Assembly (NCBI RefSeq): GCF_963677715.1
Contig: NZ_OY782495.1
Location: 2,780,001-2,844,000, forward strand
Source of the DNA: an uncultured Bacteroides sp.
Lineage (GTDB): Bacteria; Bacteroidota; Bacteroidia; Bacteroidales; Bacteroidaceae
Reading direction: 5' to 3'
DNA: 64,000 nt
The notes under the pieces were generated by a model that saw nothing but the letters and a program-made list of their open reading frames with translations, made no database searches and had not been told where the DNA came from. Numbering within the stretch: the first letter of the stretch is position 1; each line of letters opens with the position of its first letter. Below, piece after piece: positions 11,986-17,066 of the stretch. A program made the position numbers and the translations under genes.

Positions 11986-12016
11986 TTTGGAGATAATGAA
12001 AAAGCCGCTAACTTTG
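11986..12016 (+). promoter_or_regulatory. promoter of the ilv operon
   Basis: TTTG (11986-11989), 19 bases, then TAACTTTG (12009-12016). This is an exact fit to the Bacteroides consensus TTTG-N19-TAnnTTTG. Transcription should begin at about 12022-12025, roughly 24 bases before the leader-peptide ATG. The preceding 11793-11985 stretch shows no gene or other signal I can support. Confidence 0.8.
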
Positions 12017-12046
12017 CAGCACGATTTAGAAAAATAATGTTGGATT

Positions 12047-12121
12047 ATGTATAGAAATACATCTATAAACCTGTCTCTGCTGCATATTATTAGCGTCGTG
12101 GTGGTCCCATTGGGAGCATGA
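12047..12121 (+). CDS. ilv operon leader peptide (24 aa, branched-chain-rich)
   Basis: A short reading frame, ATG to TGA, starting about 24 bases after the predicted transcription start. Its second half reads LSLLHIISVVVVPLGA: Leu, Leu-Leu, Ile-Ile and four consecutive Val codons, the three end products of the operon behind it. This parallels the E. coli ilvGMEDA leader, which has runs of Val/Ile followed by Pro and Gly-Ala. The stop codon TGA (12119-12121) is the first three bases of a segment that can pair with the 5' arm of the terminator at 12166. The peptide itself is not expected to have a function; its translation speed is the sensor. It is too short for usual gene calling. Confidence 0.85.
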   Translation: MYRNTSINLSLLHIISVVVVPLGA

Positions 12122-12176
12122 GAAGGGTTTGTGTATGTATATTCGTACAATAAAATATTAATTGGAGCCTTTCTCA
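12119..12176 (+). promoter_or_regulatory. predicted antiterminator of the ilv leader
   Basis: TGAGAAGGGTTT (12119-12130) can pair with GAGCCTTTCTCA (12165-12176) at all 12 positions, three of them G-U. The second segment is also the 5' arm of the terminator, so the two structures are mutually exclusive. A ribosome stalled at Leu/Ile/Val codons (12071-12112) leaves 12119-12130 free and the antiterminator forms. A ribosome that reaches the stop codon covers it and the terminator forms. The pairing is read from the sequence; the mechanism is inferred. Confidence 0.75.
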
Positions 12177-12197
12177 CTGTGTGAGAGAGGCTTTTTA
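12166..12197 (+). terminator. ilv attenuator (rho-independent terminator)
   Basis: AGCCTTTCTCAC (12166-12177), loop TGT, then GTGAGAGAGGCT (12181-12192), a 12-bp stem with one G-U, followed by TTTTTAATT. It lies 25 bases before the ilvD ATG, between promoter and first gene, where it can only serve to regulate read-through. Confidence 0.88.
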
Positions 12198-12221
12198 ATT
12201 ATAAAATAAAGGAATAAAAAA

Positions 12222-14024
12222 ATGAAAAAACAATTACGCAGTTCGTTTAGTACACAAGGTCGCCGCATGGCGGGTGCCCGGGCATTATGGGCCGCCAATG
12301 GTATGACGAAGGAACAATTGGGAAAGCCGATTATCGCTATAGTGAATTCATTTACACAATTTGTACCGGGGCATGTCCATCTGCACGATATAGGGCAGCA
12401 AGTGAAAGCCGAAATTGAGAAGCTGGGTTGCTTTGCTGCTGAATTTAATACGATTGCCATTGATGACGGCATTGCCATGGGGCATGACGGTATGCTCTAT
12501 TCTCTACCATCTCGCGATATCATTGCCGATAGTGTGGAGTATATGGTAAATGCCCATAAGGCAGATGCGATGGTTTGCATTAGTAATTGTGATAAGATTA
12601 CTCCGGGAATGTTGATGGCTGCCATGAGGCTGAATATCCCCACGGTATTTGTTTCCGGCGGGCCAATGGAGGCAGGAGAGCTTGACGGGCAACATCTTGA
12701 TTTGATTGACGCTATGATTAAGTCGGCCGACGACAATATAAGCGATGGAGAGGTGGCCAGGATTGAACAAAATGCTTGTCCAACGTGTGGCTGTTGCTCG
12801 GGTATGTTTACTGCCAACTCGATGAACTGCCTGAACGAGGCGATTGGTCTGGCACTTCCGGGCAATGGAACCATTGTGGCTACACATGCCAACAGAACCC
12901 AACTGTTTAAAGACGCTGCAAAGCTGATTGTGGAGAATACATTTAAATATTATGATAAAGGCGATGAAACGGTATTACCCCGAAACATTGCTACCCGTGC
13001 CTCTTTCTTAAATGCAATGACACTGGATATTGCTATGGGAGGATCAACAAATACGGTACTTCATCTGCTGGCAATAGCTTATGAAGGTGAAGTTGATTTT
13101 ACGATGGATGATATTGATATGCTTTCACGTAAAAGTCCTTGTTTGTGCAAAGTTGCGCCGAATACTCAGAAGTATCACATCCAGGATGTTAACCGTGCCG
13201 GAGGTATTATGGCTATTATGGGCGAACTGGCAAAAGGTGGATTCATTGAAACGAACGTATGTCGTATAGATGGCATGACGCTGGCGGAAGCAATAGATAA
13301 GTATTGCATCACCAGTCCGAATGTATCCGAAGAGGCGATAAAGAAATATAAGAGTGCGGCGGCAGGTCGGTTTAATTTGGTGCTGGGCTCTCAGGATGTT
13401 TATTATAAAGAACTGGATACTGACAGAGCTACAGGTTGCATTCGCGATGTGGAGCACGCTTATTCTAAAGATGGCGGACTGGCAGTGCTGAAGGGGAACA
13501 TAGCTCAGGATGGTTGTGTGGTGAAAACAGCAGGTGTAGACGAAAGCATCTGGCGGTTTACCGGGCCGGCGAAAGTCTTCGATTCGCAAGATGCGGCTTG
13601 TGAGGGTATCTTGGGTGGAAAGGTCGTCAGTGGCGATGTGGTGGTTATCACCCACGAAGGGCCTAAAGGAGGGCCGGGTATGCAAGAGATGCTTTATCCT
13701 ACCTCTTATATTAAATCTCGCCATTTAGGCAAAGAATGTGCGCTGATTACTGATGGCCGTTTTAGTGGCGGCACCTCGGGCTTAAGCATAGGTCATGTTT
13801 CTCCTGAGGCAGCAGCCGGAGGAAATATTGGCAAGATTCAAAGCGGAGATATTATAGAAATCAATATACCGGAGAGAAGTATCAATGTGAAACTGACGGA
13901 TGAAGAACTGGCTGCACGCCCGATGACACCCGTTACCCGTGAACGAAATGTGCCGAAGAGCCTGAAAGCTTATGCCAGTATGGTTAGTTCGGCAGATAAA
14001 GGAGCGGTTCGCTTGATTGATTAA
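12222..14024 (+). CDS. ilvD: dihydroxy-acid dehydratase
   Basis: Dehydrates 2,3-dihydroxy-isovalerate and -methylvalerate to the 2-keto acids, the last common step to valine and isoleucine. A cytosolic Fe-S enzyme. Cluster cysteines are seen in [12 protein letters not shown] (about residue 122) and [18 protein letters not shown] (about 190-207). The C-terminal [21 protein letters not shown] motif is intact. 600 aa, usual length. First structural gene after the attenuator; ilvB follows after 33 bases. Confidence 0.98.
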
Positions 14025-15765: not shown

Positions 15766-16323
15766 ATGGATACACTATATACGCTTAACGTTTATTCGGA
15801 AAACCTGGCCGGTATTCTGAATCAAATCACAACTATATTTACACGCAGACAGTTGAATATAGAGAGCTTGAATGTTTCGGCTTCTTCTATCAAAGGCATT
15901 CACAAATATACCATTACGCTATGTACCGATGAGGATACAATACAGAAAGTGACGAAGCAAATTGAAAAACGTGTCGATGTGGTACAGGCTCATTACTTTA
16001 CCGATGACGAAATCTTTTATAGAGAAATAGCACTTTATAAGGTTCCTACGGAAGAATTGCTGGCCAGTAACCAAATAGAATATATTGTGAGTCGACACAA
16101 TGCGCGCATAATCGAGGTCAACTCCACATATTTGGTGGTTCAGAAATCGGGAACTACGGAGGAAACGCAGTCTCTTTATGATGAATTGATAAAGATCGGT
16201 ATTTTGCAGTTCGTCCGCTCGGGGCGCATTGCCATTACTAAAAGTTGCGTGGAGAAATTGAGTGAATATCTTGCAGAAAGGGAAGAAAAACATATTCGAT
16301 GCAAAAAGAACTGTGAAGAATGA
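15766..16323 (+). CDS. ilvN: acetolactate synthase, small (regulatory) subunit
   Basis: The regulatory partner of the large subunit, normally responsible for valine feedback inhibition. The N-terminal ACT domain (about residues 3-75) begins YTLNVYSENLAGILNQITTIFTRR and contains NIESLNVSAS. The C-terminal domain follows to residue 185 (family 160-190). The last codons overlap the next gene in an ATGA arrangement (16320-16323), indicating translational coupling with the thioesterase. The symbol ilvH is equally used for this family. Confidence 0.95.
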   Translation: MDTLYTLNVYSENLAGILNQITTIFTRRQLNIESLNVSASSIKGIHKYTITLCTDEDTIQKVTKQIEKRVDVVQAHYFTDDEIFYREIALYKVPTEELLASNQIEYIVSRHNARIIEVNSTYLVVQKSGTTEETQSLYDELIKIGILQFVRSGRIAITKSCVEKLSEYLAEREEKHIRCKKNCEE

Positions 16324-17066
16324 GTGGTGAAACTAGTAAAATAGGCACCTATTCTTTCATCGCGGAGCCTTTTCATGTCGACTTTAACGGTAGATTAACG
16401 ATGGGTGTACTGGGTAATCATTTACTTAACTGTGCCGGCTTTCATTCTACCGATCGTGGCTTTGGCATTGCCTCTCTGAATGAAGATAACTATACATGGG
16501 TGCTGTCTCGTTTGGCTATTGAGTTAGACGAGATGCCTTATCAGTATGAGGAATTTAAAGTTCAGACTTGGGTGGAAAATGTATATCGCCTCTTCACCGA
16601 TCGTAACTTTGCCATTATTAATAAAGAGGGCAAGAAGATAGGTTACGCCCGTTCTGTTTGGGCAATGATAAACCTTACTACCCGCAAACCGGCCGACTTG
16701 TTGGCTTTGCATGGAGGTAGTATCGTTGATTATGTTTGCCGGGAACCTTGTCCGATAGAAAAACCTTCGCGCATCAGGGTAGAGGCACAAGAGGTTGCTT
16801 CGACTGTAACGGCCCGGTACAGTGATATAGATATCAACGGGCATGTTAACAGTATCCGATACATAGAGCACATCCTCGATTTGTTTCCGCTTGAACTGTA
16901 TAAGAGCAAGCGTATTCACCGTTTCGAGATGGCTTATGTGGCCGAAAGTTATTATGGCGACGAACTGTCGTTTGTTAAACAAGAGATGGGTGAAGATGAA
17001 TATCATTTGGAAGTAAAGAAAAACAAAGATGAGATTGTCTGCCGTTCGAAGGTCGTGTTTAAGTAA
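16320..17066 (+). CDS. acyl-ACP thioesterase (FatA/FatB-like, double hotdog)
   Basis: Hydrolyses acyl-ACP to free fatty acid. 248 aa forming two hotdog domains. The first starts IGTYSFIAEPFHVDFNGRLTMGVLGNHLLNCAGFH. The second (from about 160) holds the catalytic segment DINGHVNSIRYIEHILD, matching the N-x-H-V-N pattern of plant-type acyl-ACP thioesterases. It overlaps ilvN by 4 bases and precedes ilvC by 93, so it is inside the ilv operon. Branched-chain keto acids are precursors of the iso/anteiso fatty acids that dominate Bacteroides membranes, which may explain the linkage (inference). Chain-length specificity cannot be read. Confidence 0.9.
   Translation: MSGETSKIGTYSFIAEPFHVDFNGRLTMGVLGNHLLNCAGFHSTDRGFGIASLNEDNYTWVLSRLAIELDEMPYQYEEFKVQTWVENVYRLFTDRNFAIINKEGKKIGYARSVWAMINLTTRKPADLLALHGGSIVDYVCREPCPIEKPSRIRVEAQEVASTVTARYSDIDINGHVNSIRYIEHILDLFPLELYKSKRIHRFEMAYVAESYYGDELSFVKQEMGEDEYHLEVKKNKDEIVCRSKVVFK

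What the first reader, a model, noticed from the sequence alone, without database searches (positions are those of the whole stretch)
11986..12221. Complete ribosome-mediated attenuator in front of the ilv operon
The sequence shows a consensus Bacteroides promoter and a 24-codon leader peptide with Leu-Leu, Ile-Ile and four consecutive Val codons. Its TGA stop opens a 12-nt segment (12119-12130) able to pair with 12165-12176, and a terminator (12166-12197) shares the latter arm. These are all the parts of the E. coli ilvGMEDA/ilvBN mechanism. Amino-acid attenuation is best documented in Proteobacteria; here it appears in a phylum without Shine-Dalgarno-led initiation. The logic (stall at Val/Ile/Leu codons frees the antiterminator) fits the geometry.
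Basis: partly seen in the sequence, partly recalled or inferred. Interest (0 to 1): 0.85.

Follow-up and report, generated by a model that had tools for sequence, protein, structure and literature searches.

The report
Bacteroides ilv operon leader-peptide attenuator
In front of the genes that make valine, isoleucine and leucine, this Bacteroides-type bacterium carries a tiny decoy gene and a switchable RNA hairpin that most likely let a stalled ribosome turn the operon on when those amino acids run short; it is the textbook E. coli trick, here widely conserved in the Bacteroidales.

Summary
Window 11986-12221 has a Bacteroides promoter (TTTG-N19-TAACTTTG), a 24-codon leader ORF (12047-12121; MYRNTSINLSLLHIISVVVVPLGA), an antiterminator arm opened by the leader stop (12119-12130 with 12165-12176) and an intrinsic terminator (12164-12194), before ilvD-ilvB-ilvN-thioesterase-ilvC. 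Upstream of ilvD, an I/L/V-rich leader followed by a terminator occurs in 60 of 70 genus, 34 of 46 family and 56 of 67 order loci examined, against 5 of 1830 shuffles. Terminator and antiterminator both covary, also without any pairing filter (163 sequences). Control codons lie a median 14 nt before the antiterminator arm. Few leaders have a Shine-Dalgarno-like word (5-mer 3 of 67, 4-mer 6 of 67). The kind is known: a Flavobacterium transcriptome paper reports leader-peptide attenuation upstream of amino-acid operons. Rfam gave no match. The same genome has His- and Phe-rich leaders with terminators. No expression data were available; stalling and read-through are inferred.

The parts
11986..12016 (+). 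Promoter: TTTG (11986-11989), 19 nt, TAACTTTG (12009-12016), Bacteroides type (consensus recalled)
   Evidence: TTTG-N17-23-TANNTTTG lies within 120 nt before 63 of 67 genus leader frames and 148 of 184 attenuator loci, 4 of 1840 shuffles
12047..12121 (+). Leader ORF, 24 codons, MYRNTSINLSLLHIISVVVVPLGA, Val codons 12095-12106, stop TGA 12119-12121
   Evidence: Sequence; similar leaders in the genus
12048..12077 (+). Segment 1: leader-coding RNA that pairs with 12120-12149 (protector 1:2)
   Evidence: Fold of 12047-12160, -35.3 kcal/mol, z -4.1; across loci only weakly above control
12119..12130 (+). Segment 2: 5' arm of antiterminator, begins with the leader stop codon
12165..12176 (+). Segment 3: shared arm, 3' side of antiterminator and 5' side of terminator
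12164..12196 (+). Intrinsic terminator: 14-pair stem 12164-12194, T-run 12192-12196
   Evidence: covariation
12222..14024 (+). ilvD, dihydroxy-acid dehydratase, first gene of the operon
   Evidence: NCBIfam NF009103, TIGR00110
14058..15752 (+). ilvB, acetolactate synthase large subunit
   Evidence: TIGR00118
15766..16323 (+). ilvN, acetolactate synthase small subunit (ACT domain)
   Evidence: TIGR00119, Pfam
16320..17066 (+). Acyl-ACP thioesterase, between ilvN and ilvC on the same strand
   Evidence: PF01643, PF20791
17160..18206 (+). ilvC, ketol-acid reductoisomerase
   Evidence: TIGR00465, PF07991/PF01450

Best explanation
A ribosome-mediated transcription attenuator of the ilvGMEDA/ilvBN type. 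RNA polymerase starts near 12020 and transcribes the leader; a ribosome loads without a Shine-Dalgarno sequence and translates the 24-codon peptide. If charged Val-, Ile- or Leu-tRNA is short, the ribosome stalls on the Val run (A site 12095-12106). Its leading edge then ends about at 12119, segment 1 is disrupted, segment 2 (12119-12130) is free and pairs with segment 3 (12165-12176), the terminator cannot form and ilvD-ilvC is transcribed. If the amino acids are plentiful, the ribosome reaches the stop at 12119, covers segment 2, and the terminator 12164-12194 ends transcription. If the leader is not translated, 1:2 pairing would also leave 3:4 free to terminate. Shown here: the parts, their conservation, covariation and spacing. 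Inferred: start site, ribosome occupancy, co-transcription of the five genes, termination at about 12196, and amino-acid response.
For: Anatomy. Leader plus terminator upstream of ilvD in 60/70 genus, 34/46 family, 56/67 order loci versus 3/700, 2/460, 0/670 shuffles and 0/70, 0/46, 0/67 reverse complements. Of 80 named records 33 have it: 33 of 58 Bacteroidota and 0 of 22 from other phyla (titles, list). Covariation without any pairing filter, 163 distinct sequences: terminator 92.5% of cells paired (shuffled 85.4), 117 two-sided cells (29.7), 12 of 12 pairs; antiterminator 90.6% (85.9), 60 (13.5), 11 of 12; 0 of 500 shuffles as high in each. Same on a chosen set of 57. Swapping segment 2 between species lowers pairing: 0 of 5000 permutations as good, 144 arms. 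Codon specificity: in 72 distinct leaders, mostly from outside the family, I+L+V are 56.1% of residues, F+M+W+A+C+Y 8.1%. Last regulatory codon to segment 2: median 14 nt, 152 of 167 at least 10; stop placed so that a terminating ribosome should cover segment 2 in 156 of 167.
Against: No transcript, ribosome-profiling or starvation data. The 1:2 pairing is only weakly above control across loci (149 of 167 reach 60% paired, versus 629 of 835 with segment 2 shuffled in place). Segment 2:3 pairing is not among the best of 100 shuffles in 17 of 184 loci. In 11 of 167 loci segment 2 begins 21-22 nt before the stop, so a terminating ribosome would cover it only in part. Shuffle and permutation controls do not correct for shared ancestry. 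Ten of 70 genus loci fail the joint test; of six printed, L269, L273 and L292 still show leader and hairpin by eye, while L278, L281 and L284 lack them. Eleven of 67 order loci and 25 of 58 named Bacteroidota also lack the joint pattern.
Confidence: 0.92

Rival explanations
1. The leader is a functional hydrophobic micropeptide or part of a small RNA, and the terminator simply ends its own transcript; ilvD has another promoter.
For: The leader peptide is well conserved inside the genus, and a trans-acting leader peptide exists elsewhere (peTrpL, PMC7298713, seen only in search listings with the start of its abstract).
Against: Outside the genus I/L/V codons are kept, not other hydrophobic residues (56.1% vs 8.1%), while peptide sequences differ. 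Segment 2 covaries with segment 3, which a plain terminator does not need. Spacing follows ribosome size.
Confidence: 0.03
2. A protein or metabolite (riboswitch-like or T-box-like) controls the terminator, with the ORF incidental.
For: Five leader codons (ATT ATT CGC GTC GTG in the genus) are nearly invariant even at third positions (minor fraction 0.0-0.09 in 43 distinct genus tails), so some RNA-level constraint beyond coding exists.
Against: No Rfam family reaches its gathering score here except two tRNAs. I/L/V-rich frames are found where the nucleotide sequence is not conserved. Segment 2 position tracks the control codons.
Confidence: 0.03
3. Chance resemblance: an AT-rich region gives I/L/V-rich frames and an ordinary upstream terminator.
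For: I/L/V-rich ORFs alone are not rare in shuffles (47 of 350 at score 7 or more in the genus set).
Against: The joint pattern is in 0-0.43% of shuffles of the genus, family, order and named sets and in 84% of order loci; covariation.
Confidence: 0.005

Closest known systems
E. coli / Salmonella ilvGMEDA and ilvBN leader-peptide attenuators
   Same: Leader peptide rich in Val/Ile/Leu, 1:2, 2:3 and 3:4 pairings, upstream of ilv biosynthetic genes (E. coli features recalled, not fetched here)
   Different: Leader start without a Shine-Dalgarno word; Bacteroides-type promoter; operon starts with ilvD and holds an acyl-ACP thioesterase; sequence homology to the E. coli leaders was not tested
Leader-peptide attenuation reported in Flavobacterium psychrophilum (PMC9723704, passages read)
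   Same: Same phylum; authors state strong clues for leader-peptide attenuation upstream of amino-acid biosynthesis operons, from a transcriptome study
Attenuators predicted by comparative genomics in Bacteroidetes/Chlorobi (Vitreschak et al. 2004, recalled, not held)
   Same: By recall: leaders for branched-chain, histidine, threonine and phenylalanine operons found by sequence comparison
   Different: Could not be opened, so overlap with this ilvD leader is not checked
ilvB-II / ilvBNC uORF of Corynebacterium (PMC10272879, PMC11857589)
   Same: uORF-controlled ilv operon outside Proteobacteria
   Different: Actinobacteria; seen only in search listings with the start of the abstract

Membership tests
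Ribosome-mediated (leader-peptide) transcription attenuator | Short ORF with a run of codons for the amino acid made by the operon | tested here: met
   24 codons with LL, II and VVVV before ilvD; conserved in the order
Ribosome-mediated (leader-peptide) transcription attenuator | Intrinsic terminator between leader and first structural gene | tested here: met
   Sequence and fold only: 12164-12194 plus T-run, -20.4 kcal/mol; covaries
Ribosome-mediated (leader-peptide) transcription attenuator | Mutually exclusive antiterminator sharing the terminator's 5' arm | tested here: met
   12119-12130 with 12165-12176; covariation and swap test
Ribosome-mediated (leader-peptide) transcription attenuator | 1:2 protector hairpin in the leader-coding region | tested here: inconclusive
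   Strong in the window; across loci 149 of 167 versus control 629 of 835
Ribosome-mediated (leader-peptide) transcription attenuator | Spacing lets a ribosome at control codons free segment 2 and a ribosome at the stop cover it | tested here: met
   Median 14 nt, 152 of 167 at least 10; stop in masking range in 156 of 167; 11 exceptions at 21-22 nt
Ribosome-mediated (leader-peptide) transcription attenuator | Read-through rises when the cognate aminoacyl-tRNA is short | not testable with these tools
Homologous descent from the E. coli ilv attenuators | Detectable sequence homology of leader or RNA | not tested
   E. coli leaders were not fetched or aligned
Known Rfam family (riboswitch, T-box, amino-acid leaders) | Match at gathering score | tested here: not met
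   Only two tRNAs in the window

The most novel reading that the evidence does not exclude
Bacteroidota run a whole set of ribosome-sensing attenuators (ilv, his, phe, perhaps thr and leu) that work with leader ORFs initiated without Shine-Dalgarno pairing. That would mean ribosomes load fast and stay close behind RNA polymerase in this phylum, so transcription-translation coordination does not need SD-led initiation. The ilv element would be an old trait of the order, later lost in some lineages, Prevotella-like ones among them.
Probability: 0.6. Interest if true: 0.6.

Novelty: new member of a known kind. Interest (0 to 1): 0.45.

Why it matters
It gives a clear, testable regulatory RNA, without an Rfam match, for a central pathway in a lineage that is common in animal guts. 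It also offers a natural reporter for how closely the ribosome follows RNA polymerase in a phylum that starts translation mostly without Shine-Dalgarno sites. From recall, Bacillus subtilis is thought to run transcription and translation uncoupled and to use other controls for ilv, so conservation of this design in Bacteroidales bears on which bacteria are coupled.

Tried and rejected
Second small ORF: the leader stop overlaps an ATG/GTG/TTG in 64 of 67 genus loci (12118 in the window) and the overlapping frame looked V-rich. Its length runs from 5 to 32 codons in 58 cases and it has no stop before ilvD in 6, so I treat it as a by-product of the conserved TGAG at segment 2.

1:2 protector as a conserved element: tested over 167 loci, only modestly above a control with segment 2 shuffled; claimed for the window only.

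More distant lineages: 3 of 29 and 2 of 20 phylum-level loci pass the joint test (3 of 290 and 0 of 200 shuffles). L294 and L306 (same class, not same order) look genuine, with their own matching arms; the 3 of 29 are not claimed. Gene starts in L164-L192 are approximate.

leuA: only some relatives show a Leu-rich frame, and no leuA passed the cut-off in this genome. thrA: a Thr-rich frame, but the best hairpin found is only -2.7 kcal/mol.

Rows dropped. Loci are a part of what was found: 70 loci for 96 matching genus genomes, 46 loci against 179 matching family genomes, 67 against 83 matching order genomes, 49 against 147 matching phylum genomes; fetched by score, or by hand for 120 stretches. 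Named and unnamed sets overlap (for example L029 and L193), so they must not be added. Searches used only loci with a leader score of 7 or more and a terminator of -10 kcal/mol or better (186, of which 2 dropped for a gap under 10 nt); one search also left out L164-L192 and repeats of one arm. For A1, 133 non-redundant loci passed a pairing filter, 77 were listed and I aligned 57 of these, leaving out 20 by hand (mostly displaced stops or odd lengths) with no written rule; this selection favours, so I repeated the count with no filter on 163 sequences, with the same outcome. In one search my terminator register was off by one base and gave 49.6% paired, at shuffle level; one search is the corrected register.

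Full report
What is there. The window lies in a 3.9 Mb genome, G000, contig C3. Searches give, in order: a promoter TTTG (11986-11989), 19 nt, TAACTTTG (12009-12016); a 24-codon ORF from ATG 12047 to TGA 12119-12121 (MYRNTSINLSLLHIISVVVVPLGA); a terminator stem 12164-12194 with T-run 12192-12196; then ilvD 12222-14024, ilvB, ilvN, an acyl-ACP thioesterase and ilvC (to 18206).

Alternative structures. Folding gives -17.5 kcal/mol for 12119-12177 (antiterminator), -20.4 for 12161-12203 (terminator), and -35.3 for 12047-12160, in which leader-coding RNA 12048-12077 pairs with 12120-12149. The RNA 12020-12205 has z -6.2 with 0 of 200 shuffles as stable.

Sampling. Matching genomes were 96 of 99, 179 of 201, 83 of 198 and 147 of 198; I examined 70, 46, 67 and 49 loci. 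I scored up to 450 nt upstream of ilvD.

Conservation. In the genus most leaders read like MNLHTSINLAVLHIIRVVVVASRA. The joint pattern, an ORF with at least 7 I/L/V in 10 codons followed 10-80 nt after its stop by a terminator of -10 kcal/mol or better, is in 60 of 70 own+genus, 34 of 46 family and 56 of 67 order loci; dinucleotide shuffles give 3 of 700, 2 of 460 and 0 of 670, reverse complements 0 of 70, 0 of 46 and 0 of 67. Among the 80 named loci 33 have it (0 of 800 shuffles): 33 of 58 Bacteroidota and 0 of 22 from other phyla, counted by me from the titles and the list. Named carriers include Bacteroides graminisolvens (L002), B. propionicigenes (L040), Phocaeicola faecalis (L005), Heminiphilus faecis (L029), Odoribacter laneus (L069) and a Labilibaculum (L063). 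Of 10 records titled Prevotella or Prevotellaceae, 8 lack it and 2 (L010, L021) have it. At phylum level 3 of 29 and 2 of 20 pass (3 of 290 and 0 of 200 shuffles).

Results against. Ten genus loci fail the joint test. Of the six I printed, L269, L273 and L292 still show leader and hairpin by eye and failed on a weak T-run or frame choice, as did L132 in the family set; L278, L281 and L284 show no leader or hairpin. L274, L275 and L279 share L273's leader peptide. L282 was not printed.

Covariation. For 184 loci with leader and terminator I took the best pairing of the terminator's 5' arm with the region around the leader stop: 123 beat all 100 shuffles, 167 have at most 5 shuffles as good, 17 do not. 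The arms change together, for example segment 2/3 GTGAGGCACT/AGTGCCTCAC (L306), GACCCGGAAA/TTTCCGGGTC (L219) and GTAAGAATGGTT/GGCCATTCTTAC (L205). Swapping segment 2 between species lowers pairing: mean score 24.3 own, 20.5 swapped, 0 of 5000 permutations as good over 144 distinct arms; 28 of 32 arms without the common CCTTTC core pair better with their own partner. On A1, 57 loci chosen by hand from 77 listed of 133 that had passed a pairing filter, the terminator has 11 of 12 pairs with two-sided changes, 89.9% of cells paired and score 0.371 against 0.203 shuffled; the antiterminator 9 of 12, 86.0% and 0.265 against 0.144; slid registers fall to 41-62% and 43-55%. Because that set was selected, I repeated the count on all 163 distinct sequences with leader and terminator and no pairing filter: antiterminator 90.6% paired (shuffled 85.9) with 60 two-sided cells (13.5) in 11 of 12 pairs; terminator 92.5% (85.4) with 117 two-sided cells (29.7) in 12 of 12 pairs; 0 of 500 shuffles as high. 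One search's own terminator line used a register off by one and is superseded. None of these controls removes shared ancestry.

Why a ribosome. First, codon identity: in 72 distinct leaders, from the order set and chosen named loci, mostly outside the family, I, L and V make 56.1% of residues, while F, M, W, A, C and Y together make 8.1%, with longest I/L/V runs of 3 to 12. Second, spacing: from the last regulatory codon to segment 2 the median is 14 nt (10th-90th percentile 10-16), about one ribosome half-footprint (footprint recalled; PMC4833913 gives about 12 nt downstream of the translated codon, passages read), and in 156 of 167 loci the stop is placed where a terminating ribosome should cover segment 2. 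In the other 11, several of them Phocaeicola-type, the stop lies 21-22 nt after the start of segment 2, so that it would be covered only in part, while the control codons keep 8-15 nt. Third, start context: the 20 nt before genus leader starts are 54% A, and 6 of 67 hold a 4-base and 3 of 67 a 5-base SD-like word. The 1:2 pairing is less secure: 149 of 167 loci reach 60% paired, but so do 629 of 835 controls.

Known or new. Rfam gives only two tRNAs in the window. My searches of the paper library listed no paper that by its title, listing or the passages I read describes this Bacteroides ilv leader; supplements could not be read. Ryan et al. 2020 (PMC7366714, passages) note short ORFs in B. 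thetaiotaomicron 5' UTRs reminiscent of attenuation leaders. PMC9723704 (passages) reports strong clues for leader-peptide attenuation upstream of amino-acid operons in Flavobacterium psychrophilum. [quoted passage not shown] Vitreschak et al. 2004 is not held; I recall its abstract naming Bacteroidetes/Chlorobi. So this is a well-supported new member of a known kind, not a new kind.

A wider set. In the same genome hisG is preceded by MIYTTTHHHHSPDE and a hairpin with T-run (-16.5 kcal/mol), and the prephenate dehydratase gene by MKSLTYTFSFFYYFYFSQKVEREFVCN and a terminator of -19.3 kcal/mol whose 5' arm can, by eye, pair with GAGCGGGAATTT inside the leader. His-rich frames (3 or more His in 8 codons) precede hisG in 13 of 17 loci and Phe/Tyr-rich frames precede the prephenate dehydratase gene in 15 of 16. 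A Thr-rich frame precedes thrA, without a terminator of note (-2.7 kcal/mol).

Noticed in passing
genome G000, leuA and leuC searches: The window's genome (99.84% complete) has no leuA or leuC over the family cut-offs; its leuC match lies in the window's own aconitase gene. Five of 6 close relatives searched have leuC over the cut-off, the sixth only a fragment. It may be a leucine auxotroph that still carries Leu codons in its ilv leader.
   Followed up: partly
L319 (hisG), window genome C1:134574: His-rich leader MIYTTTHHHHSPDE and a terminator-like hairpin before hisG; frames with 3 or more His in 8 codons in 13 of 17 loci examined.
   Followed up: partly
L361 (prephenate dehydratase), window genome C3:1760264: Phe/Tyr-rich leader MKSLTYTFSFFYYFYFSQKVEREFVCN, similar in all 11 genus loci examined (L361-L371), with a terminator and a possible antiterminator arm inside the leader frame.
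   Followed up: partly
L335 (thrA), window genome C3:2711897: Thr-rich frame MVNFYLHITTTSMCTTTLRG upstream of thrA; best hairpin with T-run only -2.7 kcal/mol.
   Followed up: partly
12086-12100: The leader codons ATT ATT (A/C)GC GTC GTG are nearly invariant at third positions in 43 distinct genus leader tails (minor fraction 0.0-0.09), more than coding or the stems seem to explain; perhaps a pause signal.
   Followed up: no
12118-12153: The leader stop overlaps an ATG that opens an 11-codon frame MRRVCVCIFVQ; the overlap is kept in 64 of 67 genus loci but the frame length is not.
   Followed up: yes
16320-17066: An acyl-ACP thioesterase gene sits between ilvN and ilvC, so a fatty-acid gene may share branched-chain control.
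   Followed up: no
L017, L023, L031, L032, L033, L035, L037, L046: Eight of 10 records titled Prevotella or Prevotellaceae lack leader plus terminator before ilvD; perhaps a loss, not tested on a tree.
   Followed up: partly
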